Below, piece by piece: positions 42,746 to 64,000 of a stretch of DNA of 64,000 nucleotides. The DNA lies in contig JAILLO010000093.1 in assembly GCA_024693105.1 (NCBI GenBank), positions 1 through 64,000 of the forward strand. Reading direction: 5' to 3'. A program made the translations under genes and the position numbers. This stretch comes from Clostridia bacterium. Its GTDB lineage: Bacteria; Bacillota; Clostridia; Peptostreptococcales; Anaerovoracaceae. Positions within the stretch are counted from its first letter, which is position 1, and each line of letters opens with the position of its first letter. Under the pieces are notes generated by a model that did no database searches, had not been told where the DNA came from, and saw nothing but the letters and a program-made list of their open reading frames with translations.

Positions 42746-43849
42746 CTATTCCAGTCTGATATTTTCGCCAAGTATAAAGTCACGATCCAGTTCACATGAC
42801 TGATATTCCGAAAGGAATGCATTCATGTCGAGATAGCAGTAACTGTTAAGATTTCCTGCCTTGTCGAGGAATATTATCTTTGCCTTGCTCCTGGCCGGTT
42901 TAAACTGTTCAATCAGGAATTTCAACTGCGCGTATAGTTTTTCATCCTTATGCTGCCGTATAATAATAGTAAAGGAATACGGGTCTGAACTGTACAGCTT
43001 GTCGTATGTATCCTTATCCTGCGCCGAAACGCTTCCCACACGTGATTTTTCGATAATAATCGGCTCCTCACCAAGTATAAGCCTGCAAATCATGCTTACG
43101 GCTCTTCTGGTACCCTTTATGCGGCTCAGACGATAACCGTTTTTCAAAAGCTCACGCATCTTTTCCTCCTCAAGAAAGCCGCCGTCTATTTTTATTCCCA
43201 TCCAATCCGCAAGTATAGGCAAAACTTCAAGCGGGGCTTTTTCAGGATCCACAAGATTCGGAAGTGCCTCAATCCTGCGGTCAAAATCCATATAAAGAGA
43301 CGAAAAGATTGAAAGATATCTTCCGAAGAAATCTCCCTGATTCTTGTATATTTCAGGGAACGTCTTTAAAAATACATCACCGGGATTAAAAACAGTTATG
43401 GATTTAATTTCACACATCATGCTGCCGATGATTTCAATTCCGATCCACAGATATCTTCCCTGCAGACTGCTGAGAAGAAGATCGTCGACATTTGAAAATT
43501 TCTTTCCGCCGCTCATTATTACAGCCTTGAATTTTGTTACAAAAGGCTCATCCGGATTCATAAAAAAGTCATCAAATTTGGTCTCAAGACCGTTTCTCAG
43601 AAAATAATCGTTATCCGAGGCAAACGCATAAACATTAAAGACCGTTTCAGACTCAATATCCATATCCATACTGAATCTTCCCCAGACTGTGTCTTTTTCG
43701 CCGCTGTCAATCTTTGAAAAAAACAAAGCAGCCGCGCTTTCGCTTCCGTCTACCGCAAGATGGCCGTTTTCAAGAAGCGTAAAACCTTTCTTCGCGGCTT
43801 TTCTGAATCTGTTGATATTAATTCTGAAGATTTTTGCATCCGTAGCCAT
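42746..43849 (-). CDS. CIS baseplate protein, TIGR02242/gpI-like
   Basis: This is the last gene of the contractile injection system operon. The 367-residue protein has an N-terminal beta-rich part (about 1-155) and a C-terminal phage-tail-protein domain (TIGR02242): FPEIYKNQGDFFGRYLSIFS, LVDPEKAPLEVLPILADWMG, then GYRLSRIKGTRRAVSMICRL and YSFTIIIRQHKDEK. Proteins of this type complete the baseplate wedge in phages (gpI) and CIS. The ATG has AGGAG at 7 bases. It follows the 705-residue baseplate-J protein with an 81-base gap. No receptor-binding fibre gene follows it. Confidence 0.8.
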   Translation of the reverse strand: MATDAKIFRININRFRKAAKKGFTLLENGHLAVDGSESAAALFFSKIDSGEKDTVWGRFSMDMDIESETVFNVYAFASDNDYFLRNGLETKFDDFFMNPDEPFVTKFKAVIMSGGKKFSNVDDLLLSSLQGRYLWIGIEIIGSMMCEIKSITVFNPGDVFLKTFPEIYKNQGDFFGRYLSIFSSLYMDFDRRIEALPNLVDPEKAPLEVLPILADWMGIKIDGGFLEEEKMRELLKNGYRLSRIKGTRRAVSMICRLILGEEPIIIEKSRVGSVSAQDKDTYDKLYSSDPYSFTIIIRQHKDEKLYAQLKFLIEQFKPARSKAKIIFLDKAGNLNSYCYLDMNAFLSEYQSCELDRDFILGENIRLE

Positions 43850-43930
43850 AACTTTTCTCCTATTTTAATTTCCCGCCGAACAGACTGTCAGGCAATTTGT
43901 TCCGGATTGCCCGGATTGCCGGCTGCTTTC

Positions 43931-46048
43931 CTAAATTCTGTCTATAAGCTGTATACTCAGTTCCTTCAGGAAGCATAGCTCGTTATATTCAAACTGAAGA
44001 TCTTCACCTGTAGTTTTTCTCGAAGAATCACCCTGCACCGAAATCGACAGATTGTAGATATATTCCACGCACGGAAGCTTTTCAAGCTTGCTGTAAATAT
44101 CCGAAAACGGCAGCTTTTCTCCGAAACCGTGCTCGCCTTCAATAAAGTTAAGTTCTTTGTCCAAAAGCTCTGATATCATCCCTTCGGCATTGCTGTAATG
44201 CGCTTTTACATAAACAGAACCGCTCACAACAAGAGGCACGTATTTCGGTTCTTCAAGTACAACATTAGTCGTTAAAAGACGGTATCTGTTCACATTTGAC
44301 ATGATTACCTTTTTGTACTGCTCGCTAAGAATCGGGAAAGGCTTCCTCGATATCGGAAGCACAACAAGCTTCACCAGATTCTTTTTGTAATCAACACCGG
44401 CTTTCACCTTTTTTATGGCAAGCCCCGGCGTCTCCATAACTATTGTCTCGTAGTCCTCCCTTGTTACTGCCGTTGCCGTATGGCTGAAATCTTTAATAAA
44501 GCGGCTTCTCATGTCCTCGGCCGATTCTTCTTCTTTTCCTTTAACACTTGAAGCCACGCTTATGAATTCGGCCTCGCGCACCTGCGGATTGTCCACAACG
44601 ACGAACAATCCCTCCTCCGGTTCATATTCGCCCGGCATAAATCCTGCATTCTTTATGAGCTCTTCCATTCCGCCTTTTATCTGTGAAAGCCTCGAGGAAA
44701 TCAGCCATCCCTCCGACGCAATACCCGGTTTTAGAATTTTAACATTGTCATCCGCTATCGTATATAAAAATCCGTCCGCGCTTTCCGTATCCGGCCTGAC
44801 AAAGCTGTAATAAGCCTCGCCGTTTTCATCGTTCTGCTGCAAAATAAGTTCAAAATCAGAGGTTATTACATCTTCTGTATCAAGCTCGACCGTCTGACCG
44901 TCATAGGCATAAACCTCGCCGATATTCTCCCTTCCCGCATATGCAGGTCCGTATATAACCACCTTTATTTCACAGTCGCTTTCAGCGGGAATTTCATTCG
45001 CAAATTCAAGTTCAAGCCTGTAATTTTCTCTTGCGATCACGCTGTAAACAAACGGGCTGTTTTTGGATTCAAGCTGTTCTCTTTCACAGCTGCTGCAGAA
45101 TCTGTAATACTCCCCGTCACGCCTGTAAACCGCAAAAGAGCCGTTTTTCAGCAGATTTGTACAAACTGTGAAGTGCCTGTCTCCTCCCGCAAAATCAAAC
45201 GTACCGGCAAGTGTCTTCTTCTGCTTCATTCTGAATACATTTGAAAAAACATTCCTTACCTGCGGAGTAATATCATAATTGTTTTCAAGCAGCAGGCATC
45301 TTACGGCAAATCCGAGGTCATCAAAGACTGCCGGAGTTTTTTCCCCTTTTTTGAAGACAATGCATCCGTCATACATAAAAAGCCTCGTGTTGTCCTCAAC
45401 ATCCATATCCTCCCAGCCGTTTTCGGTATAAAGCTGCCATTTCATTTTTGAGAAAACAATTTCCGGACGCTCTCCCAGGTTGTTTCTCTCATTTTCGTTA
45501 TCGTCAACATCAAAATAAAGAACTACCTCTTCACCTCCGAAAGCATCAAAGATAAAATACAGTTCGCTTCCTTCTTCCTGATCCTCCGGGAAAACATCAA
45601 TGAGACTGTCATTATTTACATCAAGTACCCTTGAAATATCCCTGCGCCTCAATCCCGAAACTCCGAAAACCCTTTTTAGCGGATTGTTGTAAAGCTTAAC
45701 GGTATTCTCAACCTCAAAGACGCTCTCATCGCATGTAAACGGCGTTCCTGCAGGAATTTCCATCGGTTCGCTGCTGTGTGATTCAAATCTCACGAAAACC
45801 TCCGCAGGCGTCCTTTTAATCCTTTCAAAACCCAGAAGCCCCAGCATTTTCATCTTCAGAAACTCCGTCAGTTCATCAATGGCAGTTTCCTGAATAAGAT
45901 TCATCGCTGACAAAGACTCAATAACAGTCAGACCCGGGTCTGAAGGATTAAAATTTGTCCATTCACTGCAAAGCAGCGGAATCCGGTACAATGCGTCTTC
46001 CATCAGATCGTTATACGTTTTGTCAATTAAACTGAAATTTTCTATCAT
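43931..46048 (-). CDS. CIS baseplate J-like protein (smaller of two)
   Basis: Baseplate J/gp47-type proteins form the wedge ring around the spike hub. The 705-residue protein opens FSLIDKTYNDLMEDALYRIP then WTNFNPSDPGLTVIESLSAM, the standard start of putative baseplate assembly proteins in CIS clusters. The C-terminal half has the J-like core (SHTATAVTREDYETIVMETP near 515). Two J-like proteins in tandem, this one and the 1012-residue one upstream, match the paired Afp11/Afp12 organisation of extracellular CIS. The gap to the upstream J gene (46049-46161) has a tandem 36-base repeat. Confidence 0.85.
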   Translation of the reverse strand: MIENFSLIDKTYNDLMEDALYRIPLLCSEWTNFNPSDPGLTVIESLSAMNLIQETAIDELTEFLKMKMLGLLGFERIKRTPAEVFVRFESHSSEPMEIPAGTPFTCDESVFEVENTVKLYNNPLKRVFGVSGLRRRDISRVLDVNNDSLIDVFPEDQEEGSELYFIFDAFGGEEVVLYFDVDDNENERNNLGERPEIVFSKMKWQLYTENGWEDMDVEDNTRLFMYDGCIVFKKGEKTPAVFDDLGFAVRCLLLENNYDITPQVRNVFSNVFRMKQKKTLAGTFDFAGGDRHFTVCTNLLKNGSFAVYRRDGEYYRFCSSCEREQLESKNSPFVYSVIARENYRLELEFANEIPAESDCEIKVVIYGPAYAGRENIGEVYAYDGQTVELDTEDVITSDFELILQQNDENGEAYYSFVRPDTESADGFLYTIADDNVKILKPGIASEGWLISSRLSQIKGGMEELIKNAGFMPGEYEPEEGLFVVVDNPQVREAEFISVASSVKGKEEESAEDMRSRFIKDFSHTATAVTREDYETIVMETPGLAIKKVKAGVDYKKNLVKLVVLPISRKPFPILSEQYKKVIMSNVNRYRLLTTNVVLEEPKYVPLVVSGSVYVKAHYSNAEGMISELLDKELNFIEGEHGFGEKLPFSDIYSKLEKLPCVEYIYNLSISVQGDSSRKTTGEDLQFEYNELCFLKELSIQLIDRI

Positions 46049-46080
46049 GCCATCGTCCTCTGCCTTTACGGCATTTCCCG

Positions 46081-46160: not shown

Positions 46161-46161
46161 C

Positions 46162-49100
46162 TTACTTTCCAAGTATCTGCACCTTGTGCTGCCCGTTAAC
46201 GGCTATCATAAAAGGCGTAGGCTTCATCTCGTTATAATCAACTTCATGCCAGCCGTCTCTGTCCTGATAGCTTGCCGTAATTGTGTAATAACGCACAACC
46301 ACATTGTTTTCCGCGCGTTTCATAATCAGGCGAAGCTGATGCGGTGCGGGAAGTCTTCCGATTTCCCAGCCGTTTCCGTAGCATCCGGTGATCGGGTCAA
46401 TAAATTCGTTCAGTTCCCTCAGAAAATTGTTCTGAATATCGAAAATATGCTCGTAATCATCTGTATTTATCCATATATCCGCTTCGAGCTTTACAAATAC
46501 AGGTTCGACTATATTTACCTTGTTGAGCACATATTCATTGTTTGTAAGCAGTTTTTCACGAAGCTTCTCCGCAATTCCTTCGAAAGCCCTGGTTCCTTTT
46601 TTGTATTCCTTGGTCAGGACTACCATTGTAATTTCATTATCTGCGGCAGTTCCCTCAAAGTCCATGCCCGATACACACTTTGCCGAATGTATCTGGCTGA
46701 AATTTGAGATAGCTTCTCTTTCAAAATCAAGATAGCTTACCATACGGTTTTTCGAGCTGAATATTCCGGAGCCTCTTTTTAGGGCAGCCTCATAACGCTC
46801 GATATTGCTTCCTCCCGTAATCTCGGCAGGATTTGTAATGGTCCCTATAAAAGGTATCCTTCCGACAGGATTTGTAACTGCGTCGCTCGGAAGATTTGCC
46901 TCTTCGCCGTTGCAGCAGGAAACACTTACCTTCAGTGTCGGTTCCATCCTGTTTGCCTGCGGAATCCGCACATTGACACCGTTTCCGAATTTAAGCGTAT
47001 TGCTCATCCTGTCAAGGACATAATGTCTGTCTTCAGGTTTTGAACAGTCAAAATTCTGTACTTCCGACCATCTGACGAAGAAATTACGCATATTGCCAAG
47101 ATAATCATATTCGGTTCTGACATCATTCGGAAACTTTTGCTGAAGCTCCTGCATCTCGGCAAGCGAAAGAGAATTTCTTTCGTTTACAAAAACATCTGCG
47201 TTGAGAATATTTTCATATGGCAGACTGAACTCTGCATTGGCCTCCGTATTGTCAAGGAACAAATCGATCTCCTGCATTTTTTCCCTGTTTACTATATTTA
47301 TTCCGTTTATATAAATATGTCTGATATACGGATTTGTATTGTCAAATCTGTGGAGTGTTTCCTCCTCATCGACTATTTTTATCCAGAATCTCCTGACTCC
47401 TTCTATTTCGACAGCCGCAAAATCCGAAGGAGCTATCATCATGATAAGACCGCTCTTTCTGAGACCGTCTGTAAGGTCTATTACCTTCATCTGCTTGAAA
47501 CCCGAAAGCGAGGAATACAGGAATTTCAGTTTTTTACTTCTGTAATTTGTATTGTCGTTCAAAAGAAAATACAGACTGAACGGTTCGCCCTGAGGCCTCT
47601 TTGTAAGGCCTATTGCAAGAGCCTCCTCGCCCACATTGACAGGTTCAAATATCTTTGCGGACTCATCCTTTGCCATATCAAGTGTTATATCCTTCTTGTA
47701 ACGACCGGTTACCGTATCCGCAAAAACAGGAATCTGCCAGTTTCTCGAATATTTATATGCAAGCCGCATATTTGAAATTAAAGGCATCGTATGGTAGCAC
47801 GGCATCAGGTAACAGTTATCCGCCTGAACAATTCTGATTCTGAACAGTCTGCCTTCATAACCGCCGGCCTGGAACGGTGCCATATCGTCCGGACACTCAA
47901 ATTCCAGATGAACATGTCCTTCGTTGTCGCCTTTGAAAAGTTCCTCATAATTTTCACTGCAGTCAAGCTTGACCCAGCCTTTGTTGTTGAAATATTCGAA
48001 GACTACTTTTTCGACTTTTGTCCTGTAGGTTTCACCGAAAACCGTCTTACGCTTTCTCTTGATAATTTTAAGCTCGGCTTCTTCGGCTTCAGGCGTCATC
48101 GTAACGAGCTTCTCCGTATATTCAAGGTCAAAATCGAGCGAAATTACAGAGCCTCTCTGTCCCAGTATTCTGTTCTCGGCAATATAGCATTCGGAATACA
48201 ATGCCGCCGTTTCTCCGAAAGGATAGAATTTCTGCGTATCAAGCTGCGTGTTGTCATAGCAGATAAACTCCGGAATTACATCCTCTGCCTCGGAGGCCAT
48301 CTCTATCTTGTCCACGGAAACAACGCTTTCGAAAGGCTTTTCCGCCTCAATGGCTATACACTGATATTCTTTTCCCCTGATTGAAAGCCTCTCGATTTCG
48401 TTATCGGTTTCGAGAATAAAACAGCCGTCAGCATATGAAACGTTTTCGAAATTTTCAAGTCTGCCGTTTCTGTAATATTTCCAGGAATACTGCTGCGGAT
48501 CTGCAAGATTCGGGTATTCTTCATTGGCAAGATTCAGAAATCTGAGTGTAATCCTCCCGTTTTCTCCCACATCAAAAATAGAATCGTGGTAGATGACGAG
48601 TGTATTTTGTGAAACGCCTTCATTTCTGTAATCAAACAGATAAAGAGGTCTTGTATATTCATCCTGACCCGAAACGGTTTCCTCACCGCTTTCTGCCGGT
48701 TCTTCCGTGGCATAATCGCTTTCACGCAGAGGATTTATTCTGTCGGCCTGCCCCAGATACGGAATAATCTTTCCCTGCTCCTTGCTCAGACCCATTACAT
48801 AATCGATTGAAACACTTGCGACATACATTGTCTGGTCTGTTTCGAAAACGATGCTGTTGCCGTTTTCCGAAGTACCCATGAGCTTTGTTCCCGCAGGCAC
48901 ATATGTCCCTTCGACAGTCGGGCTTATTGTTTTCATTACCACGGTACCCTCTGCAGGAATTGCCGGAAGTATTGAAAGGTCGAGAAGATTTACAAATTCA
49001 ACTCTGTATCGCTCCATAACCTGATTGGTTTTTCTGATATTGTCACTCAGCTGTTCAGCGAAGATCATTCCTATAGTGGAACCTATATCGGGATTTTCAG

Positions 49101-49200
49101 TGTCAAATTTCCACTCCGGGGTATATGATTTGGCAAGCCTGTCAATCTCTTTATATATATCTTCCGATGTTCTGCTGTCTATTTTAAACTTGTTATCCAT
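46162..49200 (-). CDS. CIS baseplate J-like protein (larger of two)
   Basis: The 1012-residue protein starts FKIDSRTSEDIYKEIDRLAK then WKFDTENPDIGSTIGMIFAE, typical of long CIS baseplate J-like proteins (Afp11-like). The N-terminal 200 residues include PAEGTVVMKTISPTVEGTYV; the middle is long and beta-rich with acidic inserts; the J core lies in the last 300 residues (SKNRMVSYLDFEREAISNFS, CVSGMDFEGTAADNEITMVV). In the assembled machine it should form baseplate wedges that hold the sheath first ring and trigger contraction. It lies 21 bases after the gp25 stop, with AAGAGGT ahead of its ATG. Confidence 0.85.
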   Translation of the reverse strand: MDNKFKIDSRTSEDIYKEIDRLAKSYTPEWKFDTENPDIGSTIGMIFAEQLSDNIRKTNQVMERYRVEFVNLLDLSILPAIPAEGTVVMKTISPTVEGTYVPAGTKLMGTSENGNSIVFETDQTMYVASVSIDYVMGLSKEQGKIIPYLGQADRINPLRESDYATEEPAESGEETVSGQDEYTRPLYLFDYRNEGVSQNTLVIYHDSIFDVGENGRITLRFLNLANEEYPNLADPQQYSWKYYRNGRLENFENVSYADGCFILETDNEIERLSIRGKEYQCIAIEAEKPFESVVSVDKIEMASEAEDVIPEFICYDNTQLDTQKFYPFGETAALYSECYIAENRILGQRGSVISLDFDLEYTEKLVTMTPEAEEAELKIIKRKRKTVFGETYRTKVEKVVFEYFNNKGWVKLDCSENYEELFKGDNEGHVHLEFECPDDMAPFQAGGYEGRLFRIRIVQADNCYLMPCYHTMPLISNMRLAYKYSRNWQIPVFADTVTGRYKKDITLDMAKDESAKIFEPVNVGEEALAIGLTKRPQGEPFSLYFLLNDNTNYRSKKLKFLYSSLSGFKQMKVIDLTDGLRKSGLIMMIAPSDFAAVEIEGVRRFWIKIVDEEETLHRFDNTNPYIRHIYINGINIVNREKMQEIDLFLDNTEANAEFSLPYENILNADVFVNERNSLSLAEMQELQQKFPNDVRTEYDYLGNMRNFFVRWSEVQNFDCSKPEDRHYVLDRMSNTLKFGNGVNVRIPQANRMEPTLKVSVSCCNGEEANLPSDAVTNPVGRIPFIGTITNPAEITGGSNIERYEAALKRGSGIFSSKNRMVSYLDFEREAISNFSQIHSAKCVSGMDFEGTAADNEITMVVLTKEYKKGTRAFEGIAEKLREKLLTNNEYVLNKVNIVEPVFVKLEADIWINTDDYEHIFDIQNNFLRELNEFIDPITGCYGNGWEIGRLPAPHQLRLIMKRAENNVVVRYYTITASYQDRDGWHEVDYNEMKPTPFMIAVNGQHKVQILGK

Positions 49201-49654: not shown

Positions 49655-50488
49655 TCAGCCTCCAACCTTTACTACCTGACCTTCAACCGAAACAAACGAA
49701 CCTGAAGTCTTGACATTCTGACCGTCAATTTTGAGATTGTTTCCTTCGATATCTACTGTTGCGCCTTTGATCTTTACGCTGCTGTTCGCTTCAAAGGTAA
49801 AGGTATTTGCTTTTATCGTAACTGAATTTGACTGACCGTTGAGTTCAATCTTTGCATCTCCTGTCTTCAGCAAAACGTCTGTTTCAGCCTCGACTTCGAT
49901 TTTTCCTTTATTTGATCCGGCAGTTTTGCCTGTTGTTATCAGTACTTTGTTTTTCCCGTCTTTGTCGGAAATTTTGAGATAACCCGCCTCGTTGTTGAGT
50001 TCTATAATATGTGTCTGATTTTCGCCTGTTGCCTGTATTGTCAGGCAGCTTGCTTTTTTGGAAGATTCTTTTCCCGCTCCGTCATCAAAGCGTATAAAGC
50101 TTCCCGAATTCGTCTGAATCACCTTCAGATTGTTGTCTTCTTTTGCATTTTCGGAAAGGAATTTATTCCCTTCCTTCGGTATGCATCCGATTACATAAGG
50201 TCTTTCAATATTTCCGCCCTCAAAAGCAAGGAGCACCTCATCGCCGATTTCGGGAAGAAAATAATGGCCCCAGGTCTCGCCGCTGCTTGGCATTGCCACT
50301 CTTGCCCACATTATTTCGTTCTTTTCCTCGTCTCTTGTAGGTACCTGAACGCAAACCTTGCCCTTGATGCCTTCAATATAATTCTTTGTGACAACGCCCA
50401 GCATTACACCGAAAATACGCGGGTCTCCCGTCTCGCTTTTTACAACATTTTTTGCCGAAATATCTTCGAAAACATCCAACATGCTCAT
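49655..50488 (-). CDS. CIS spike protein, gpV/VgrG C-terminal-like
   Basis: The central spike punctures the target membrane. The 277-residue protein has an OB-fold like phage gpV/gp5 (FGVMLGVVTKNYIEGIKGKV, MWARVAMPSSGETWGHYFLP, VLLAFEGGNIERPYVIG) at about 20-115. A C-terminal repeated beta pattern (about 150-277) follows, likely a triple-stranded beta-helix needle. The hub (gp27/gpD) part, fused in VgrG and Afp8, is a separate gene here. Start is at the ATG at 50488 with GAGGTAAAGACT ahead of it. The 144-base gap to the hub gene has no gene. Confidence 0.85.
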   Translation of the reverse strand: MSMLDVFEDISAKNVVKSETGDPRIFGVMLGVVTKNYIEGIKGKVCVQVPTRDEEKNEIMWARVAMPSSGETWGHYFLPEIGDEVLLAFEGGNIERPYVIGCIPKEGNKFLSENAKEDNNLKVIQTNSGSFIRFDDGAGKESSKKASCLTIQATGENQTHIIELNNEAGYLKISDKDGKNKVLITTGKTAGSNKGKIEVEAETDVLLKTGDAKIELNGQSNSVTIKANTFTFEANSSVKIKGATVDIEGNNLKIDGQNVKTSGSFVSVEGQVVKVGG

Positions 50489-50632
50489 AGTCTTTACCTC
50501 ATCCGGCCACAGAGTCCGCAAAGACTCCTGCCGCCCGTCACCTTTTAACTTCTGCCTGTTTTGGCCTCCTGTGCCATATGTCTGCCCCGGCTTGCTTCGT
50601 CATCTTACTGCTTCAGCCTTCGCACTGCTTTT

Positions 50633-51785: not shown

Positions 51786-52466
51786 TTATAAATTCAGATT
51801 TAGAATATTTTCCACCTTGCTTGTCGCAGATCTTGCATCTGCCTTGTTTTCCTTGAAAACCTTGGAAAACGAAAGTGCCATTTTCGTAACTACCTCACGA
51901 TGGTTGACGCTCTCTCTGATTCTCAGTAATATTGAACCTCTTACAGGCTCTCCCGAAGGACTGAACATATCAAAAGAAGTCTGTGCTTCAGATACCGATC
52001 CCACAATTTTTAATTCGTTCCATATAAAACCGACATATTCCACCTCAGGCGAAATCAGAAGGGAGGAAAGTGCGCAAAGCTGTTCCTTTACGGAACCTCC
52101 GCCCGACATTTTTCTGAAGGCAGTTGCCGCAGCCTTTGCGACTTCTGTAGGGTTTGGCGTCATACTTGCAAGATTGATTTTTTCCTGTGAAAAGCAGTCA
52201 AAACGCATTGTGTCGTCAAACATAATCTTGAGCTGAAGCATACCCTGAATAGGTCTTGCCTTGACATAGAAATGCATATCCTTTAGTCTCTGCTGTCTGT
52301 AACTGTTAACTGCAACCGGTTCACTCGATGCAAAATAACCGATTGTAGACGGATTGAACTGAACTTGAAAATACAGTTCACTGCCGTCCTCGGCGCAGAT
52401 ATAAAGAATGCCTTTTTCTACCATACCCACGAGGCCTTTTCCTGCTGCCTCCATAACTCCCGGCAT
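51786..52466 (-). CDS. CIS_tube-family baseplate/tube adaptor protein (second copy)
   Basis: This 226-residue protein carries the CIS tube N-terminal-like domain: ELYFQVQFNPSTIGYFASSE, then DMHFYVKARPIQGMLQLKIM. The FNPST motif is the usual mark of this family (Afp7/Pvc7-like adaptor between tube and hub). Unlike Afp7 it has no C-terminal LysM domain. It follows a paralogue by 19 bases and precedes the hub gene. The pair may build two adaptor rings below the tube. Confidence 0.78.
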   Translation of the reverse strand: MPGVMEAAGKGLVGMVEKGILYICAEDGSELYFQVQFNPSTIGYFASSEPVAVNSYRQQRLKDMHFYVKARPIQGMLQLKIMFDDTMRFDCFSQEKINLASMTPNPTEVAKAAATAFRKMSGGGSVKEQLCALSSLLISPEVEYVGFIWNELKIVGSVSEAQTSFDMFSPSGEPVRGSILLRIRESVNHREVVTKMALSFSKVFKENKADARSATSKVENILNLNL

Positions 52467-56124: not shown

Positions 56125-57267
56125 TCAGGAGTTGTTGTTGTTATTATTGTTGTTATTGCCGTCTGTGCTTGAAGGTGTGGTCGGATCTGCCTTAGCAAGC
56201 ACTTTCTTGATATCATCGATTTTCTCTTTTGTTTTGTTGAACTGTTCCTGTTTTTCTTCGACCTTTTCCTCGGCCTTGTTGAGTTCGTAAAGCTCCTTAT
56301 TAAGTTTGTCCTGAGCAGCAGCCTTTTCAGCATCCGTTGTTGCGGCCGCAAGTTCGGCCTTGGCAGCGGCAACATCCGCCTTTTCGGTCTCAAGATCGGC
56401 TTTTGCCTGTTCAAGTTCTGCATTGGCAGCGGTATTTGCAAGTTGAGCCTTGGCAAGTTCACCCTCTGCCTGCGATTTCTGTGCGTTTAAGAGAGCATTT
56501 GCCTTTTCTGATTCTTCGTATTCCTTATCGAATTTTTCTTTTGCTTTTTCTTCTTCCTTCTTGGCCTGGTCAAGTTCTTTCTGTGCATCAGCCTTTTCGG
56601 AATCCGTTTGAGCATCATCAAGTTTCTTCTGTGCGTCTTCAACCTTCTTCTGAGCTGCTACGAGATCCTTGGCAGCTTCGTCTGCTTCGCCCTTTTCCTT
56701 ATCTGCGGAGCTCTTTGCTTTCTCTGCATCTTTCTCGGCCTTGTCCGTATCGTAGCCCACAACTGTTCCCGTTCCGCCGAGAGCGCTGTGGTCTGCTTCT
56801 GCCGCACCGTGCGAATTCGTCCACGGAAGATTTACAACAAGAAATTCCTTGTAAGCAATAGTAATTGTTTCTGTCAGAAGACCGCTGTGTTCGGCATCAA
56901 GTTCTCCCCAGGTTTTACTTATAACAGTACAACCGGTAAAAGTGTAAGTTCTTGCCGCTCCGCCAAAATCTCCCGCATTTTTGCTCACCATCAGAAGAAT
57001 CGGAAGTACCGGTTCTGAACCGAGCGGAAGAGGATCGATATATTCAAAGCCCGTATATCTTTCTACTGTAAGGGTAAACGGCTTTGAAATAGGCTTTCTT
57101 CTCAAATGAACATAGTCATTGAGACCGCCTTCCTGTATATATTCAAATTCATTTTCCCGCGTAAAAGCATGGACTTTTTTGCATGGAACGTCATAAAGTC
57201 CTTCAACACGAAGCATAAAATTTGTATTCATCAGGACGCCGCGTCCTGCTTCAGATACTACAGCCAC
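56125..57267 (-). CDS. CIS tube paralogue with long C-terminal coiled coil
   Basis: Residues 1-150 look like a T4 gp19-type tube protein: MNTNFMLRVEGLYDVPCKKV, HLRRKPISKPFTLTVERYTG, and ISKTWGELDAEHSGLLTETI, which parallel the segments of the main tube gene. From about residue 176 to 360 the sequence is almost only Ala, Glu, Lys, Asp and Gln, a long coiled coil. It ends TDG, nine Asn residues and Ser. Start is a GTG at 57267 with GGAGG ahead of it. A second tube-like gene is normal in CIS, where it forms the tube start or cap, but the coiled-coil extension is not. It might sit inside the tube or link to the 892-residue protein. Confidence 0.75.
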   Translation of the reverse strand: MAVVSEAGRGVLMNTNFMLRVEGLYDVPCKKVHAFTRENEFEYIQEGGLNDYVHLRRKPISKPFTLTVERYTGFEYIDPLPLGSEPVLPILLMVSKNAGDFGGAARTYTFTGCTVISKTWGELDAEHSGLLTETITIAYKEFLVVNLPWTNSHGAAEADHSALGGTGTVVGYDTDKAEKDAEKAKSSADKEKGEADEAAKDLVAAQKKVEDAQKKLDDAQTDSEKADAQKELDQAKKEEEKAKEKFDKEYEESEKANALLNAQKSQAEGELAKAQLANTAANAELEQAKADLETEKADVAAAKAELAAATTDAEKAAAQDKLNKELYELNKAEEKVEEKQEQFNKTKEKIDDIKKVLAKADPTTPSSTDGNNNNNNNNNS

Positions 57268-57355: not shown

Positions 57356-57553
57356 TTATTTTCTGTATTTATTGATGTCGAAAATATTTTCCGACTCTTT
57401 GTCTGAGGGATTCAGACTCTTGTTTATTTCCGATATTTCACTGCACCATTTGCGTCTGCTTTTGTGATCCAGTTTCATAACATCTTCCCTGCTCCAGTGG
57501 AAGTAATATGAAATGAACGACATTTCCCGGTACAGCTCCTCCTCCGGATACAA
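57356..57553 (-). CDS. DUF6760-like small CIS protein
   Basis: This 65-residue protein fits DUF6760, a short helical protein found in CIS clusters: YPEEELYREMSFISYYFHWS then MKLDHKSRRKWCSEI. I place the start at the TTG at 57553, because GGGAGG lies 7 bases ahead and because it follows the assembly protein's stop by 2 bases. Function is unknown. Its location between the assembly protein and the tube paralogue matches other CIS clusters. Confidence 0.7.
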   Translation of the reverse strand: MYPEEELYREMSFISYYFHWSREDVMKLDHKSRRKWCSEISEINKSLNPSDKESENIFDINKYRK

Positions 57554-57555
57554 GG

Positions 57556-57918
57556 CTATCCCTCCCTGGTAAAATTTATCGGTACACTGTGCACCTTTCC
57601 GCATTCAGGGCAGACAACTTCCATTGTCGGCGGCTCAATACTGTTGATTCTCTGATACATATCCTGCAAAAAAGCAAGATCTGCCGTAAACATATGCTCT
57701 ATCACCGTAGGAAGTATTTCAACCCCCTCAAGCTCGGTAATTACACGGGAGAGAATCACTATCGTAAGATAGGACGGATTCATCATTACGCGCGGATCCC
57801 TTGTCGCGGAAATTTCATCTCCTGCGGTAGCAAGTCTCATTTTCCCTTTTTTGTGAACATTTCCCGCGCCGTCCACATAGCCTCTTGGGAGTTCAAAGTC
57901 ATATACTGTTGTAAACAT
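57556..57918 (-). CDS. CIS tail-assembly protein with zinc-knuckle-like Cys pair
   Basis: This 120-residue protein resembles the small tail-assembly proteins of CIS (gp24/chaperone-type): MFTTVYDFELPRGYVDGAGN, DPRVMMNPSYLTIVILSRVI, then a C-terminal VVCPECGKVHSVPIN. It probably chaperones tube or tape-measure assembly, by analogy to phages. The single CxxC is unusual in such proteins; it may bind zinc with a partner. It lies 86 bases after the main tube gene, separated by a UUCG-loop hairpin. Confidence 0.72.
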   Translation of the reverse strand: MFTTVYDFELPRGYVDGAGNVHKKGKMRLATAGDEISATRDPRVMMNPSYLTIVILSRVITELEGVEILPTVIEHMFTADLAFLQDMYQRINSIEPPTMEVVCPECGKVHSVPINFTREG

Positions 57919-58004: not shown

Positions 58005-58496
58005 TTAGGTTGCTGAAGTGCCCGATGGAACAGTGAGTTCTTCGTATGCAACTTCCATGGAAGCAACTGCCACTTCGTTTGCAGTACTGTTCATATCAGG
58101 AATTGAATACTTTGTAATAAAAGCATTCTTCAGAGTCCATGCCACTGCTCCGGCGTTTGTGCCGTCGTTAAGCGAAGTAAGAAGCTCAATCTTGATATCC
58201 TTTCTTGAAGGTTCAGGTCTGTTGTCAGCTACGCAGGTATGTGCCCATGCAAGGAACTGGCTGCTTGTGATGTAACCCATTTTGAAAGTTACATTTCCGT
58301 GCTTAACAAGTCCCGGCATCTTAACGGAAGTCCACAGTTTTGCGTTTCCCTGACGGAATTCAATTACTTCTGCAGTCGCATCCATACCGGAAACTTCGGT
58401 GAATGCGCCTACAGAACTTATATCTGAGTCACCTAAATCTGTTGCGGATACCACAAAATTCATTTTGGTCATTGGATATGTGTATTCGTCTGCCAT
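58005..58496 (-). CDS. CIS inner tube protein, T4 gp19-like
   Basis: This is the main subunit of the inner tube. The 163-residue protein matches gp19/Pvc1: FVVSATDLGDSDISSVGAFT, VIEFRQGNAKLWTSVKMPGL, HGNVTFKMGYITSSQFLAWA, and a C-terminal VASMEVAYEELTV. Length is normal for the family. It lies 104 bases after the sheath gene and has GAGGAGGT before its ATG, fitting a highly produced structural protein. A short CCCGG/CCGGG hairpin is in the gap (58553-58567). Confidence 0.93.
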   Translation of the reverse strand: MADEYTYPMTKMNFVVSATDLGDSDISSVGAFTEVSGMDATAEVIEFRQGNAKLWTSVKMPGLVKHGNVTFKMGYITSSQFLAWAHTCVADNRPEPSRKDIKIELLTSLNDGTNAGAVAWTLKNAFITKYSIPDMNSTANEVAVASMEVAYEELTVPSGTSAT

Positions 58497-58600: not shown

Positions 58601-60286
58601 TTACTGAGCTGTATGCTGAGTAATTCTGAAGATTACAAATTCTGCAGGCTTTGACGGTGCGATACCGATCTGGCAGATGAGTCTGCCGTTTTCAATATCG
58701 TCTCTTGTCATTGTGTTAGGGCCGATATCAACATAGAATGCTTCTGCTTCTGTAGCTCCAACCAGCATTCCTGCTCTCCACAGTCCTCCGAGGAAGCCCT
58801 CGATGGTCATTCTTACTCTGTCCCACAAACCTGCATCGTTTGGTTCGAATACAACCCAGTTTGTGTTTGCGCGAATGCTTTCTTCCACAAATATGAAGAG
58901 TCTTCTTACATTGACATATTTGAAGTTTGAATTTGAAGAAGCTGTTCTTGCTCCCCAGATTTTGATACCCTGTCCCGGAAGCGCTCTGATGAGGTTTACT
59001 CCCTTAGGATTGAGAATATCCTGTTCGCCTGTATTGAAGTTTGTGCTGAGTCCGGAAGTCATGATTGTCTCATTTGCCGGTGCCTTGTGCACTCCGCGAA
59101 CGATATCTGTTCTCGAATATACGCCTGCAACAGAACCCGAAGGCGGAATAAATGCCGGCTTCTTTGCCTGCTGGTCAAATATCTGAATCCACGGATGATA
59201 CATTGCAGCGTATGTACTGTCAATGAGTTCTCTGTATTCAAGAATTTCGTTAGTCTTGACAAGATCCATAGGAATGTCAAGTACTGCAAAACAGGACTTC
59301 TTTCTTTCGCAGAATGTAACAAGTGATACAACTACTTCAGGAAGAGTGATTCCCGGAACTGCCATAATGCTTACTACATCATTTTCAAGGAATGACATGA
59401 TACCTGTTCTCTTGCCCGGGCCGAGGTCTTTTCCGATGAAAACATCAGGAGTAACATTCTTAACTTCGCCTTCAGTTCCTCCGGAAAGAGTGATTGTAAC
59501 AACACCCTTGCCTTCTTCTCCTGTAAGCAGTTCTGTAGGTGAACCGATGCCGAAGATTTCCTGGCACTCAAATCTTACAAGTGCGCTCTTTGCCATCTTT
59601 CTTACGATGAAGTCGCTTGACTCAGGATTGAGGCATACGCCTGTATAAACTTCGCCTTCTCCTCCGCAGGAAACAGTTACGTCAACCTCTGCGGAATATA
59701 CAAACTTCTTCGGAATCAGATCTGTATCAACAGGATTCTCTGCAAATGCTCTTTCAAATACTACATGATCTCCGTTAACCGAAAGGATTTTGTTGTACTC
59801 TCCGTTAAATACAACAAGATTTCCTTCTTCAAAACCGGACAGAGACTTTGCAACATATTCTGTGTCGCTTACCTGTTCAAGCATCTGTGCCTTAAAGCTG
59901 CTTACGTCTTTGAAATTGATTGTAACTTTGTTGCCCCATTTACCTTCGTTAGCTGCCGTTACTCTGATAGCGCCTGTTGTAACAGTTGCTGCCGCTGCTC
60001 CTTCAGGAGCAACTCTTGAAACGTAACATCTTGTTCCTCCGTTAATAAAGAACTGTTCTACAGCATATGGAAGGAAACGGTTTCCGCCGTATACATGCTC
60101 ACCGAGATAGCCGCCGAATACTCTGATATATTCAGCATAGCTTGTGATAAGAACCGGTGCCCCGGAAGTAGGTCCCTTTTCCGCAAATCCCACAAAACCT
60201 GCAGTACTTGTTCCCACGCCCTCTATCGCTCTTGGCGCCGAATCAAATTCCTCGACATAAACACCTGGAGATAAATATTCTGCCAT
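58601..60286 (-). CDS. CIS contractile sheath protein
   Basis: This is the sheath subunit that stores contraction energy. The 561-residue protein has the typical start SPGVYVEEFDSAPRAIEGVG and GFVGFAEKGPTSGAPVLITS, a variable middle, and the conserved C-terminal domain: INLIRALPGQGIKIWGART-like region near residue 430, VNVRRLFIFVEESIRANTNW, then VRMTIEGFLGGLWRAGMLVG and VIFRITQHTAQ. Only one sheath gene is present, versus three in AFP/PVC. Its 5' region has an unusual hairpin directly ahead of the ATG. It lies 127 bases after the PAAR-like gene. Confidence 0.96.
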   Translation of the reverse strand: MAEYLSPGVYVEEFDSAPRAIEGVGTSTAGFVGFAEKGPTSGAPVLITSYAEYIRVFGGYLGEHVYGGNRFLPYAVEQFFINGGTRCYVSRVAPEGAAAATVTTGAIRVTAANEGKWGNKVTINFKDVSSFKAQMLEQVSDTEYVAKSLSGFEEGNLVVFNGEYNKILSVNGDHVVFERAFAENPVDTDLIPKKFVYSAEVDVTVSCGGEGEVYTGVCLNPESSDFIVRKMAKSALVRFECQEIFGIGSPTELLTGEEGKGVVTITLSGGTEGEVKNVTPDVFIGKDLGPGKRTGIMSFLENDVVSIMAVPGITLPEVVVSLVTFCERKKSCFAVLDIPMDLVKTNEILEYRELIDSTYAAMYHPWIQIFDQQAKKPAFIPPSGSVAGVYSRTDIVRGVHKAPANETIMTSGLSTNFNTGEQDILNPKGVNLIRALPGQGIKIWGARTASSNSNFKYVNVRRLFIFVEESIRANTNWVVFEPNDAGLWDRVRMTIEGFLGGLWRAGMLVGATEAEAFYVDIGPNTMTRDDIENGRLICQIGIAPSKPAEFVIFRITQHTAQ

Positions 60287-60296
60287 AATTCTCTTC

Positions 60297-60318: not shown

Positions 60319-60413
60319 TCCTCCTTTCACCTATTCTTTATATCCCTGCTATAACATCAGGTTTAAAAAATAACTTGTATAACCACGACTTTTCGGTCAA
60401 TTGGATATCTTTT

Positions 60414-60797
60414 TCAGATAACGACTTTAGTCTGTCCCGGAAATACTATTGATATCGAACCACCCCAAACGCATGTGCATTTTGCGGTCTGGTCGATTGC
60501 AGGCATTCCGCCCACCAGCCTTTTGGTTGCCGGAGCCCAGGGTGCAACAGTATTCGGGATACATGGTGCCGGTGTGAAAACACCCAAGGCTGCTGCCGTA
60601 GCGGCTTGAACCGCCGGATTTGCCGGACAAGTGCACATGCCAAAAGGCATAATATTTGCTAAAGCATTAAAATCCTTTATTGTCGCTTCCGGCTTTCCGT
60701 CTGCCATTGTCTTCGTCTGAGATGTCACCATAAGTTGCGAGGGGACTGTCCCAAACGTGCACATCAGGTTTGCGCCGGTCACTACCGCCATAGCCAT
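60414..60797 (-). CDS. PAAR-like DUF4280 tip protein
   Basis: PAAR-like proteins cap the spike tip and bind cargo. The 127-residue protein fits DUF4280: MAVVTGANLMCTFGTVPSQL, then ATIKDFNALANIMPFGMCTC, and KCTCVWGGSISIVFPGQTKV. Its seven or so cysteines could bind a metal at the tip. It lies upstream of the sheath, far from the spike gene at 49.7 kb, a separation seen in some CIS clusters. The ATG has AAAGGAGGAG ahead. Confidence 0.85.
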   Translation of the reverse strand: MAMAVVTGANLMCTFGTVPSQLMVTSQTKTMADGKPEATIKDFNALANIMPFGMCTCPANPAVQAATAAALGVFTPAPCIPNTVAPWAPATKRLVGGMPAIDQTAKCTCVWGGSISIVFPGQTKVVI

Positions 60798-60818
60798 AAC
60801 TTTACTCCTCCTTTCTGA

Positions 60819-61544
60819 CTAAAGTTTAAAATCATCTGCAAGTCGGAAGTCAAGGAACGCGAAATGCTCCCCTTCCTCATCACAGGTTTTAACAATGTAT
60901 TTCTCATTTCCCTCATCCGCAAGGACAAGACTGTAATTTCCCTCTTCGTCAACTCGCCCGAAGCAGATTCTGTTAATTCTGTCTCCGACTGAATATTCCT
61001 TTTCGGGAACTGTCTGTACCTTGATTTTTCCTCCTCCGATATTTTTTATGATATCAAGACGCTCATAAGTCATATCTCTGTCACTTATAATCGCATAAGG
61101 CGTCTCGAGAAAATCTTTTCCCCTCTGATCGTAAACTGTAATAATTCTTTTGCGTTCGTCCGTTTCACGATATCTGCATGTTTCTCTGTTCAAACGGACT
61201 GCTTCAATCGATGTGAGGCCCCTTTTGCACCCCTCAAAGCGCCTGAACGGCCTGTCCCCCGTATAATATTCGTCAGGCATAAGATACAGCAGCCTGTCAA
61301 TCATCTTTCCGTCCGGTTCCACGTCCACCTCAAAGGTAAGAGGTTCAAAGCCGTAGGCTTTAACCGTCAGCTTCAGATGTCCCGGCAGCAGATCCGTAAA
61401 AACATATACGCCGGCGCCTTTTCCGATTGCATTGATCGGCACATTTCCGTCTGCGGTAAATTTCGCTTTTTCGAATATATTCACTCCCGAAACGGTATCA
61501 AACAGGCTGACAGCCAGTAAAACCCTGTATCTGATATTAAGCAT
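60819..61544 (-). CDS. beta-sandwich (carboxypeptidase-regulatory-like) CIS accessory protein
   Basis: The 241-residue protein has an N-terminal Ig/CarboxypepD-reg-like fold: RYRVLLAVSLFDTVSGVNIF, GAGVYVFTDLLPGHLKLTVK, then AYGFEPLTFEVDVEPDG. The rest is beta-rich without a family. In other CIS and phage-like clusters similar proteins sit near the DUF4255 gene, possibly as decorations or fibre-attachment parts. Start at the ATG at 61544 overlaps the DUF4255 stop by 8 bases, with GGAGGG upstream. Confidence 0.68.
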   Translation of the reverse strand: MLNIRYRVLLAVSLFDTVSGVNIFEKAKFTADGNVPINAIGKGAGVYVFTDLLPGHLKLTVKAYGFEPLTFEVDVEPDGKMIDRLLYLMPDEYYTGDRPFRRFEGCKRGLTSIEAVRLNRETCRYRETDERKRIITVYDQRGKDFLETPYAIISDRDMTYERLDIIKNIGGGKIKVQTVPEKEYSVGDRINRICFGRVDEEGNYSLVLADEGNEKYIVKTCDEEGEHFAFLDFRLADDFKL

Positions 61545-62127
61545 CTTTCTCACCCTCCATGCGAATGTTGAATTCGGCTTCAACAACAGGCGAAGCTTCA
61601 GCAACAATTTCGCTGCTTATAAGAACGGGCGCAGCCTTATAAAACAGGCTTACCTGATACGGTTTGTTGATTGTCTGCCAGATTCTTGCCTTTTCCTCAA
61701 GCGTAAGCTTCGGTGCGGAAAATATAATCGGCGGCTCAGCGAAATCAAGCCACGGCTGAATTTCACGCGGTGAAACCGTTTCCGTATCCGCAACTACCTG
61801 TGCAACCTTGCCAAGTATCTTCTGGATGTCAGGCGCCTTAAGACCCATCTGTGAAGAACCGTTTATAAATATCATGTAATAAAGAGTGTACGGCTTTGGT
61901 GGTTTTTTGAGTCTTGTCTTTCCGCTCTTTATCATAGGCGGCGTTGAAATTTCGCCTTCCTGCTTGATATCAAACAAATATACACCGAGAATATAGTCAA
62001 CATCCTGTGCCGAAGGTGATGAGGACTCTATCGAATGCTCTGTCGGAATAGGTTCCGGACACATTTTCTTTCTCAGTCTGCTTACAAGAAAGTTTGTAAC
62101 ATCCGAAATAATCGTATAATCTGCCAT
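61537..62127 (-). CDS. DUF4255 / Pvc16-like tube or sheath terminator
   Basis: DUF4255 proteins (Afp16/Pvc16-like N-terminal domain) close the growing tube/sheath at the distal end. The 196-residue protein shows the domain: YTIISDVTNFLVSRLRKKMC, DYILGVYLFDIKQEGEI, RLKKPPKPYTLYYMIFINGS and VSLFYKAAPVLISSEIVAEA. It overlaps the accessory gene downstream and follows the partial first gene by 11 bases. It is a strong CIS marker, not found in ordinary Firmicute prophages to my knowledge. Confidence 0.88.
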   Translation of the reverse strand: MADYTIISDVTNFLVSRLRKKMCPEPIPTEHSIESSSPSAQDVDYILGVYLFDIKQEGEISTPPMIKSGKTRLKKPPKPYTLYYMIFINGSSQMGLKAPDIQKILGKVAQVVADTETVSPREIQPWLDFAEPPIIFSAPKLTLEEKARIWQTINKPYQVSLFYKAAPVLISSEIVAEASPVVEAEFNIRMEGEKDA

Positions 62128-62138
62128 GCCTTTCCTCC

Positions 62139-64000
62139 TTATTCGATAATCATTCCCGTAAGTTCATCAGCGGCATCCTGTGCATCTGCATCAAGCAGAA
62201 CTCCGTAATCCGAACCGGACAGGTAAATCGTAATAAATCCCCATTCCGAACTTATATATGAGCTTGGAATGTACAAAAGCTTTTGCGTCATTGCCGGAAT
62301 CGACATTTCCGAATTTGTGCCGTTCTTTGTGACAACCTTTGAAAAGCTGCTGAACTCATAACGCTGAGAGCCCTTTGCAAGGACAGCGTTATTCCTGCTT
62401 ACATACCATACATATCTCCATCCGAGCTTTTGTGCCACCGCATTTACCGGAGCATAAAGTCCGTTTGCAACACGTATTTTTTCGAAAACATAAGGATTTC
62501 CCGACTGTTTCATCTTTTGAGCCAGCGCATTCATCTTGTTTTTCAGTGCGTCACCCTGCGGACTGCCGGAAGCTGCTGCTATCGCATTATTCATTGCGGA
62601 AAGCTTGCATGCGTCTTTTTCGGCTCCCGTAAGGTCGTCGGCTTCGTCAAGGGCATCATCAAGAATTCCTTCAACTTCGGCCGGATCCTTGATTCCTACC
62701 ATTCCGGCTTCATAAAGATCGATATTTTCGGCTATTATTCCTTTTGCAAGGTCAATTGCACCGTCAAAAGCATTGTTTGTTGCGGCAGCCGGAACATTCT
62801 GTGTCGAACCGCCTGCACCGCCGCTCTTTCCTGCGTTTGAAGTGCTGTATTTCTGATCTCTCATAGCTTCAAGAAGCTGCTGTACTGCCGGGAATGCCGT
62901 CTTGTAATCCGTTTCCATAAGTGCATTCAGACTTCCGAGAATATTCTCAAGCTGCGAAAGATTTGCATTTGTACTTCCCGAACCTGCACCTCCTGCTCCG
63001 CTTCCGCTGCCGGAGGTTCCCGAACCTGCTCCGCTTCCGCTGCCGGAGGTTCCCGAGCCTGCTCCGCTTCCGCTACCGGAGGCTCCCGCGCCTGCTGAAG
63101 AATCCGCACCGTATGCAGGTCCTTCCGAAGCAATACTGCTTATTAGATTGAGTGCGGTGTTCTTGAGGTCAGCCACCATGTCGGAATTCGGGCTGCCGGA
63201 TTCACCAAGCTCCTGAATCTGTGCCGTTATGTCGTTGATTTCCGACATAATGCTCTTTGCAAGTGCCAGATTGTTGTCTGCAAGTGCGTCCTCATATTGT
63301 GCCTCGAGCTGGTCCTTCTTTGCCTGAAGCAAATCCTTTTCACCGCCGCCTGCAGCTGCCTTCAGTTCACTGAGTGTCTGCTCAAGCCATGTGATATAAT
63401 CCTGAACCGCATTCTGGGCTTTAACCGCAAAATCGTCGGTCGGAATATTTCCGACATATGTATATGCCTTTTCAAGTTTTGATTCTATAAGCTTCTGTGC
63501 TTCGGAATTTGGAATTCTTATGCACTTTGCGTTAAGATAAACCTCAAGCTCCGTTACCTGCATGGAAAGCATGTCGTAAAAATCATCCTGAAGTCTGTTC
63601 AGAACAACAGTCGAAGCCTGTTTTGAAACTTCCGTCTTGTATTCCCCGTTTTCACCGGATGACTTGTCTCTTTCGAAAATTCTTTCCGCCTCCGGAATCA
63701 GTTCTTCGTTCAGAAGCCTGAGTTCTCTTTCTCTGTCCACAACCTGCGCACTTGAGATATTGTCAAGCGCAACGATGTTTTTTACATCCAGCGCCGAATT
63801 TGCATCATCATTTGCCCTGCAGTGTTCTATAAGCGAATTCTGATATTTGTATTTAACCTTGCTTGCAACAGTAGTCCCCTCACCGAGCGCCTTTGCAGAG
63901 CATTCGGCCAGGCTGTCCTGAACATTGTTGTAGCTTTCTTCGTATGCGGAGCCTACCGCAACGCTTCCCGCAATCTCCGAATATTCGATATCATCCGGAT
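62139..64000 (-). CDS. CIS-linked coiled-coil protein with Gly/Ser repeats and a stalk-like C-terminal domain (5' end outside window)
   Basis: The frame stays open from the stop at 62139 to the right edge, so at least 619 residues are encoded and the start is outside the window; an internal GTG at 63740 is not needed. The N-terminal visible part is helical (EVYLNAKCIRIPNSEAQKLI region and QLEAQYEDALADNNLALAKS). A Gly/Ser/Ala linker of about 50 residues from a 30-base repeat follows (about 62985-63090). The last 120 residues (RVANGLYAPVNAVAQKLGWR, then MTQKLLYIPSSYISSEWG) resemble the copper amine oxidase N-terminal (stalk) domain of secreted Firmicute proteins. No signal peptide can be judged. 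Role in the CIS is unknown. Confidence 0.65.
   Translation of the reverse strand, partial: PDDIEYSEIAGSVAVGSAYEESYNNVQDSLAECSAKALGEGTTVASKVKYKYQNSLIEHCRANDDANSALDVKNIVALDNISSAQVVDRERELRLLNEELIPEAERIFERDKSSGENGEYKTEVSKQASTVVLNRLQDDFYDMLSMQVTELEVYLNAKCIRIPNSEAQKLIESKLEKAYTYVGNIPTDDFAVKAQNAVQDYITWLEQTLSELKAAAGGGEKDLLQAKKDQLEAQYEDALADNNLALAKSIMSEINDITAQIQELGESGSPNSDMVADLKNTALNLISSIASEGPAYGADSSAGAGASGSGSGAGSGTSGSGSGAGSGTSGSGSGAGGAGSGSTNANLSQLENILGSLNALMETDYKTAFPAVQQLLEAMRDQKYSTSNAGKSGGAGGSTQNVPAAATNNAFDGAIDLAKGIIAENIDLYEAGMVGIKDPAEVEGILDDALDEADDLTGAEKDACKLSAMNNAIAAASGSPQGDALKNKMNALAQKMKQSGNPYVFEKIRVANGLYAPVNAVAQKLGWRYVWYVSRNNAVLAKGSQRYEFSSFSKVVTKNGTNSEMSIPAMTQKLLYIPSSYISSEWGFITIYLSGSDYGVLLDADAQDAADELTGMIIE
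62985..63090 (-). repeat. 30-base in-frame tandem repeat coding Gly/Ser/Ala linker
   Basis: About three near-identical 30-base units (minus strand about GGAAGCGGAGCAGG plus GGAACCTCCGGCAGC) encode GSGAGSGTSG-like linker. Confidence 0.85.

What the first reader, a model, noticed from the sequence alone, without database searches (positions are those of the whole stretch)
42746..64000. Contractile injection system in a monoderm Clostridia-like chromosome
Sequence shows a co-directional run with sheath, gp19 tube, DUF4255, DUF4280 tip, DUF6760, two CIS_tube proteins, gpD hub, gpV spike, gp25, two J-like baseplate proteins and a TIGR02242 protein, and no capsid, portal, terminase, integrase or lysis gene. 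Known families make this an extracellular/cytoplasmic-type CIS and not a prophage. Compared with AFP/PVC it has one sheath gene, a split hub and spike, two LysM-less CIS_tube proteins, a coiled-coil tube paralogue and very large unknown proteins, so it may be a separate lineage.
Basis: partly seen in the sequence, partly recalled or inferred. Interest (0 to 1): 0.85.

Follow-up and report, generated by a model that had tools for sequence, protein, structure and literature searches.

The report
Clostridial contractile injector with membrane module
This stretch encodes a complete spring-loaded, phage-tail-like injection machine found in many gut Clostridia, and it travels with an exclusive set of membrane and cell-surface proteins suggesting that, unlike typical free-floating versions, it is bolted to the envelope of a single-membrane bacterium.

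Summary
The contractile injection system (CIS) is real and complete; it is not a prophage. The operon continues past 64,000 to about 73,960 on the 94,928-base contig, and no capsid, portal, terminase or integrase was found among the proteins scanned there. The out-of-window half encodes a conserved module: an eBAP3/CIS13-like baseplate protein, a tail-anchored kinase-fold protein lacking the catalytic Asp, a multi-pass sensor, a MORN membrane protein, a secreted TolC-like protein and a ~900-aa single-pass surface protein. Among loci with enough flank, the surface, TolC-like, MORN and sensor genes lie upstream of the sheath in 63/68, 61/64, 58/62 and 45/49. Across 391 Clostridia-class genomes the TolC-like and surface proteins occur in 5 genomes each, all among the six with a close sheath, and in none of the other 385. 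The sheaths form one clade (at least 527 loci). The closest solved sheath is the membrane-bound haloarchaeal type VI system. Best reading: a cell-envelope-anchored, T6SS-like CIS in monoderm Clostridia (about 0.6); a new variant of a known kind. CISs in Bacillota are already catalogued; I found no description of this module. The mode of action is inferred, not shown.

The parts
42746..43849 (-). Tail_P2_I / TIGR02242 baseplate protein (CIS12_fam partial match); TssG-like adaptor for the CIS13/eBAP3-like protein by inference
43931..46048 (-). Baseplate J-like protein (TIGR02243-like), second wedge protein
46162..49200 (-). Large baseplate J-like protein (TIGR02243-like), 1012 aa
49222..49629 (-). 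gp25 / sheath initiator
49655..50521 (-). gpV/VgrG OB-fold spike protein
50633..51766 (-). gpD-like hub (YQBQ; weak VgrG-related)
51786..52466 (-). CIS_tube protein, second copy
52486..53256 (-). CIS_tube protein, first copy
53356..56034 (-). 892-aa protein of unknown family, no TM segment; tape-measure candidate; homologues of 623-1139 aa, present in 55 of 58 loci with enough flank
56125..57267 (-). Second gp19-like tube protein with a low-complexity coiled-coil C-terminal extension (extension 0-872 aa in homologues)
57356..57604 (-). DUF6760 protein
57556..57918 (-). 120-aa protein matching a phage tail assembly chaperone family (phrog_508)
58005..58496 (-). gp19-family inner tube
58601..60286 (-). 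Contractile sheath; best solved match 9ezm (Halogeometricum borinquense sheath), E=4.2e-109
60414..60797 (-). DUF4280 PAAR-like tip
60819..61607 (-). Carboxypeptidase-regulatory-like domain protein, usually next to the DUF4255 protein in CIS loci
61537..62127 (-). DUF4255 / Pvc16_N cap (tail terminator) protein
62139..64000 (-). 'TM921' single-pass surface protein with a Cu_amine_oxidN1 domain; the gene continues to 64904. Upstream on the contig, same strand: TolC-like 64920-66995, MORN/TM 67017-68255, multi-TM sensor 68333-71128, tail-anchored pseudokinase 71309-72166, CIS13/eBAP3-like 72166-73959

Best explanation
A contractile injection system built in the cytoplasm and docked to the inside of the cell envelope of a monoderm Clostridium, working like a type VI secretion system rather than as a released particle. 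Proposed order of events: (1) baseplate, tube and sheath assemble around the hub and spike; the number of sheath rings is set by the 892-aa protein. (2) The CIS13/eBAP3-like protein on the Tail_P2_I adaptor, in the role TssK plays in T6SS, binds the tail-anchored pseudokinase protein in the membrane. (3) The MORN membrane protein, the multi-pass sensor, the single-pass surface protein and the secreted TolC-like alpha-helical protein form a channel or scaffold through membrane and peptidoglycan. (4) An outside signal sensed by the multi-pass protein and/or the two-component system triggers contraction, driving the PAAR-tipped tube and cargo outward into a neighbouring cell. Shown: gene content, order, conservation, exclusive co-occurrence, folds (on homologues) and TM segments. 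Inferred: binding between the parts, anchoring, direction of firing and target.
For: Among loci with enough flank, TM921 63/68, TolC-like 61/64, MORN 58/62 and sensor 45/49 sit co-directionally with the sheath. In 391 Clostridia-class genomes the TolC-like and TM921 proteins each occur in 5, all among the 6 with a close sheath (Fisher p=8e-11), and the pseudokinase in 5 of 6 plus two weak hits elsewhere. CIS13 is directly followed by the pseudokinase gene in 17 of 17 loci that have both, overlapping by 1 base in the own genome. The tail-anchored protein has a protein-kinase fold (Z 14.6), a C-terminal TM and no HRD Asp in any of 13 sequences. The OEP-like protein matches TolC/OprM-type proteins in its top 44 fold hits, with no membrane-length beta strands between the helices. 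The C-terminal part of CIS13 is conserved inside the lineage (50% mean identity over residues 451-597), unlike a diversifying receptor-binding tip, and differs in Paenibacillus (17%) and Haloferax. The closest solved sheath is that of the membrane-bound haloarchaeal T6SS (PMC11566945 also reports Bacillota Cis11 as its nearest kin). eBAP3 proteins resemble TssK and their Tail_P2_I partners TssG (PMC12923769).
Against: No protein-protein contact was modelled or measured. The 2026 catalogue treats eBAP3 proteins of Bacillota as tail fibres of extracellular particles (PMC12923769). More basal Clostridia systems (G122, G354) show the same core without the module in the stretch read, so the core does not need it. 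G060 has only weak matches to the TolC-like and TM921 proteins and none to the pseudokinase. Both fold predictions were made on homologues (L051, L019), not on the own copies.
Confidence: 0.6

Rival explanations
1. Extracellular CIS: particles are released by lysis of a subset of cells and bind targets through the CIS13/eBAP3-like protein as a tail fibre; the membrane proteins serve regulation, release or surface display.
For: Core gene set matches eCIS; eBAP3 proteins of Bacillota are catalogued as fibres and a Paenibacillus one was chosen for testing on engineered particles (PMC12923769). AAA ATPase present as in eCIS clusters.
Against: No holin/endolysin pair seen in the operon. The C-terminal part of CIS13 is conserved across families rather than diversified. 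It does not explain an exclusive membrane/TolC-like module in the same operon.
Confidence: 0.2
2. Cytoplasmic, Streptomyces-like CIS: free-floating particles that, after stress, meet membrane partners (CisA-like) and fire to kill or remodel the producing cell.
For: Two tube homologues and no conventional fibre, as in Streptomyces CIS (PMC10066040); a membrane protein is needed for firing there (PMC12237407); split hub and spike as in S. clavuligerus.
Against: The Streptomyces sheath falls outside the Clostridia clade. Five or six genes spanning cytoplasm to surface are far more than one CisA. The hosts are not known to be multicellular, so suicide firing has no obvious developmental role.
Confidence: 0.15
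3. Defective prophage or tailocin derived from a myophage.
For: General homology of sheath, tube and baseplate to phage tails.
Against: No head, packaging or integrase genes found; best phage sheaths have 23-33% identity; conserved operon in many species; AAA ATPase, DUF4255, DUF4280 and CIS_tube are CIS-type.
Confidence: 0.02

Closest known systems
Haloarchaeal T6SS (clade IIa CIS of Halogeometricum borinquense, PMC11566945)
   Same: Nearest solved sheath (9ezm); the Haloferax larsenii relative has the same core, a CIS13 homologue, AAA, split hub/spike and DUF6760
   Different: The archaeal anchor candidate is one six-TM protein (Hbor_38620); here a five-protein envelope module with kinase-fold and TolC-like members; the sheath is in a separate Clostridia clade
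Bacillota eCIS with eBAP3 fibres (Paenibacillus type, PMC12923769)
   Same: Tail_P2_I plus CIS13/eBAP3-like N-terminus (46% identity over residues 1-80), AAA, DUF4255, DUF6760
   Different: The Paenibacillus CIS13 has a repeat-rich fibre-like C-terminus, and no homologue of the membrane module was found in the stretch read
Streptomyces cytoplasmic CIS (PMC10066040, PMC12237407)
   Same: Monoderm host, two tube homologues, split hub/spike, DUF4255 plus carboxypeptidase-like pair, a membrane protein needed for firing
   Different: One membrane partner (CisA, substrate-binding-like); no kinase-fold, MORN or TolC-like protein reported; sheath outside the clade
Thylakoid-anchored CIS of Anabaena (PMC8894136)
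   Same: Baseplate periphery proteins anchor to a membrane; CIS13 here weakly matches the crown protein All3314/Cis19 (E 0.0076)
   Different: Anchoring there is through a TM helix in Cis13 and a Cis12 extension; here CIS13 lacks a TM helix and separate membrane proteins exist
Canonical T6SS (i-iii)
   Same: Proposed mode of action; TssK/TssG resemblance of eBAP3/Tail_P2_I (from PMC12923769)
   Different: No TssB/C, TssJLM or ClpV found in the cluster; a single sheath gene of phage/eCIS type

Membership tests
Contractile injection system (CIS, lineage II-like core) | Sheath, gp19 tube, CIS_tube, hub, spike, gp25, J-type baseplate, DUF4255 cap in one cluster | tested here: met
Contractile injection system (CIS, lineage II-like core) | eCIS-type AAA ATPase near the cluster | tested here: met
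   AAA at contig 77700-80084, homologous to AAA genes inside relatives' CIS clusters
Contractile injection system (CIS, lineage II-like core) | Formal assignment to a dbeCIS subtype (IIa-IId) | not tested
   No reference database at hand; nearest solved sheath is the clade IIa haloarchaeal one
Myophage / prophage | Capsid, portal, terminase, integrase | tested here: not met
   None among proteins scanned at 37.8-95 kb
Extracellular CIS (AFP/PVC mode) | Afp13-type tail fibre with variable receptor-binding tip | tested here: inconclusive
   No fibre match in Pfam; a CIS13/eBAP3-like protein exists but its C-terminus is conserved
Extracellular CIS (AFP/PVC mode) | Particles released into the medium | not testable with these tools
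   needs microscopy
T6SS (canonical i-iii) | TssB/TssC sheath, TssJLM membrane complex, ClpV | tested here: not met
   No such Pfam match in any cluster protein scanned
T6SS mode of action (membrane-anchored CIS) | Conserved membrane proteins exclusive to the system | tested here: met
T6SS mode of action (membrane-anchored CIS) | Baseplate docked at the cytoplasmic membrane; contact-dependent killing | not testable with these tools
   needs cryo-ET and competition assays
eBAP3 / CIS13_fam protein | Conserved N-terminal baseplate-anchoring domain | tested here: inconclusive
   NF053767 CIS13_fam E=9.1e-26 over residues 9-136 but below the whole-protein cut-off; identity to the published eBAP3 set not tested

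The most novel reading that the evidence does not exclude
A T6SS-like, contact-dependent, trans-envelope secretion machine of monoderm gut Clostridia, anchored by a tail-anchored pseudokinase and threaded through the cell wall by a TolC-like alpha-barrel that has no outer membrane to sit in.
Probability: 0.45. Interest if true: 0.92.

Novelty: new variant of a known kind. Interest (0 to 1): 0.72.

Why it matters
Cell-anchored contractile secretion is described from diderm bacteria and, since 2024, haloarchaea; how a contractile machine could fire outward through the thick wall of a monoderm is open. This lineage is widespread in commensal Lachnospiraceae, Oscillospiraceae and Family XIII, some of them cultured isolates, and it names five candidate anchor and wall-spanning genes that single deletions can test. 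If confirmed, it would give major gut and rumen bacteria a contact-dependent weapon of a kind not credited to them.

Tried and rejected
Prophage/tailocin: rejected. Close viral relatives: the IMG/VR scan gave 27-53% best-segment identity; the seven of its contigs placed in the tree fall outside the clade. The TolC-like and TM921 genes as a general Clostridia feature: rejected, zero of 385 genomes without a close sheath. EssB (T7SS pseudokinase) as closest fold of the tail-anchored protein: considered from memory; it did not appear in the lists shown and this is left open. Sequence search of the sensor protein against solved structures: nothing convincing; my reading of its C-terminus as a degenerate nucleotide cyclase is by eye only. 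CIS13 against solved structures: only a weak match to the tCIS crown. Full-text searches for a description of this Clostridia module gave none (open-access papers only). One early alignment (A1) was mis-specified and not used.

Full report
OBSERVATION. The window is bases 1-64000 of a 94,928-base contig in a 1.9 Mb, 91% complete genome. The 57556-57918 gene matches a phage tail assembly chaperone family (phrog_508). The 892-aa protein at 53356-56034 has no family. It sits between the second tube and the CIS_tube genes, has relatives of 623-1139 aa in 55 of 58 loci with enough flank and no TM segment, and is my tape-measure candidate.

BEYOND THE WINDOW. The operon continues with small gaps (-71 to +180 bases) to contig position 73,959: TM921 (62139-64904, one N-terminal TM, Cu_amine_oxidN1 domain), an OEP-like secreted protein (64920-66995), a MORN protein with a TM at about residue 70 (67017-68255), a 931-aa protein with four TM segments (68333-71128), a 285-aa protein with one C-terminal TM (71309-72166) and a CIS13-family protein (72166-73959, NF053767 E=9.1e-26). 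A histidine kinase and response regulator follow at 74-76 kb and an eCIS-type AAA ATPase at 77.7-80.1 kb. No head, packaging or integration gene was found among the proteins scanned.

RELATIVES. A sheath search found 6 of 99 genomes, the own one included. A scan of GTDB species genomes returned at least 527 encoding loci, of which the best 80 were kept, in Family XIII, Oscillospiraceae, Lachnospiraceae and Gracilibacteraceae, 55-63% identical. In the sheath tree all Clostridia systems form one clade (98*), with the query inside a 100* subclade; Haloferax, Paenibacillus, Streptomyces, Treponema, cyanobacterial and phage sheaths fall outside (quick tree, long outgroup branches). Phage sheaths reach only 23-33% identity. 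The best solved match is 9ezm, the H. borinquense sheath, whose system is bound to the cytoplasmic membrane and kills by contact (PMC11566945).

THE MEMBRANE MODULE. Counting only loci with enough flank, TM921 is present in 63/68, OEP-like in 61/64, MORN in 58/62 and the sensor in 45/49. Two fully read operons (G182, G313) repeat the order CIS13 - kinase-fold - sensor - MORN - OEP-like - TM921 - cap - carboxypeptidase-like - tip - sheath ... Tail_P2_I. In 391 Clostridia-class genomes, 6 carry a close sheath (>900 bits). OEP-like and TM921 are each in 5 of these 6 and in none of the other 385; the kinase-fold protein is in 5 of 6 plus two weak hits elsewhere (Fisher p 8e-11 and 2e-9; genomes are not phylogenetically independent). 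CIS13 is followed directly by the kinase-fold gene in 17 of 17 loci that have both. In a second tier (G008, G293) CIS13 - kinase-fold - MORN is kept although OEP-like and TM921 are absent. In the stretches read of G122 and G354 no module gene was found beyond CIS13 itself.

FOLDS. The tail-anchored protein (L051 copy) is predicted at pLDDT 81 and matches protein kinases over residues 1-216 (Foldseek probability 1.00, VIA Z up to 14.6). The catalytic HRD Asp is missing in all 13 aligned sequences, hence pseudokinase. The OEP-like protein (L019 copy, pLDDT 80.5) has its top 44 matches in TolC/OprM-type proteins. Between its helices the model shows only strands of 2-4 residues, too short for an outer-membrane barrel, which fits a monoderm host. 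TM counts over homologues: TM921 one in 59 of 63, MORN one or two, sensor three to five, CIS13 none in 8 of 9 (hydropathy only).

CIS13 AS HINGE OF THE ARGUMENT. A 2026 catalogue defines eBAP3 proteins as fibres common in Bacillota, working with Tail_P2_I, and notes that they resemble TssK, with Tail_P2_I resembling TssG (PMC12923769). In T6SS, TssK ties the baseplate to the membrane complex (general knowledge). Inside this lineage the C-terminal part of CIS13 is conserved (mean pairwise identity 60% over residues 1-140, 30% over 141-300, 40% over 301-450, 50% over 451-597), while Paenibacillus keeps only the N-terminus (46% over residues 1-80, 17% over 451-597) and carries fibre-like repeats. 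A conserved tip next to a translationally coupled membrane gene suggests a conserved partner in the own envelope. This is inference.

MECHANISM AND RIVALS. I favour an envelope-anchored, T6SS-like machine (0.6) over a released eCIS with CIS13 as fibre (0.2) and a Streptomyces-like cytoplasmic system (0.15). Gene content, order, co-occurrence and folds are shown; contacts, docking, firing direction and target are not.

NOVELTY. CIS in Bacillota are already catalogued (PMC8213781 lists Paenibacillus and Ruminiclostridium; PMC12923769), so the CIS itself is a new member of a known kind. I found no paper describing this module; only open-access papers and no preprints were searched. Hence new variant of a known kind.

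Noticed in passing
window 56125-57267 and homologues in L019-L098: The second tube protein has a ~155-aa gp19-like core and a low-complexity C-terminal extension of 0 to 872 aa. In 21 of 76 copies it ends with WPxx[KR][SR]A 13-26 residues before the stop; the motif occurs in no other protein examined. The own copy lacks it (poly-Asn end)..
   Followed up: partly
contig 77,700-86,142 (L002/L003): Likely CIS-associated satellite: AAA ATPase, two GNAT proteins (80319, 82903), a 307-aa protein sharing a KS[IV]FDxxxxF[KR] motif with small proteins near the AAA gene in G182 and G313, and a 785-aa candidate cargo protein with a weak PI3/PI4-kinase-like match (E 0.0024, below cut-off)..
   Followed up: partly
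contig 76,048-77,622 (+): SLT lytic transglycosylase next to the two-component system; could open the wall for the machine, but it was seen in the own genome only.
   Followed up: no
L180:3283-9832 (G182): Two large related proteins (1072 and 800 aa) downstream of the CIS with a shared N-terminal MDQLLxxxxIxxxxQQ stretch, each near a GNAT protein: possible cargo with a loading signal.
   Followed up: partly
G060:C1:1584035-1586410 and G008:C18:142214-145261: Proteins with about eleven TM segments near CIS13 in relatives with a reduced module; possible alternative anchors, compare the haloarchaeal six-TM candidate.
   Followed up: no
L175 (Treponema succinifaciens plasmid pTRESU01): CIS-like sheath/tube/gp25/J cluster on a plasmid with M23 peptidase and SH3 proteins.
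   Followed up: no
window 39782-42229: 522-aa protein with weak MCP-signalling similarity and a 200-aa protein just downstream of the operon; relation to the CIS unknown.
   Followed up: no
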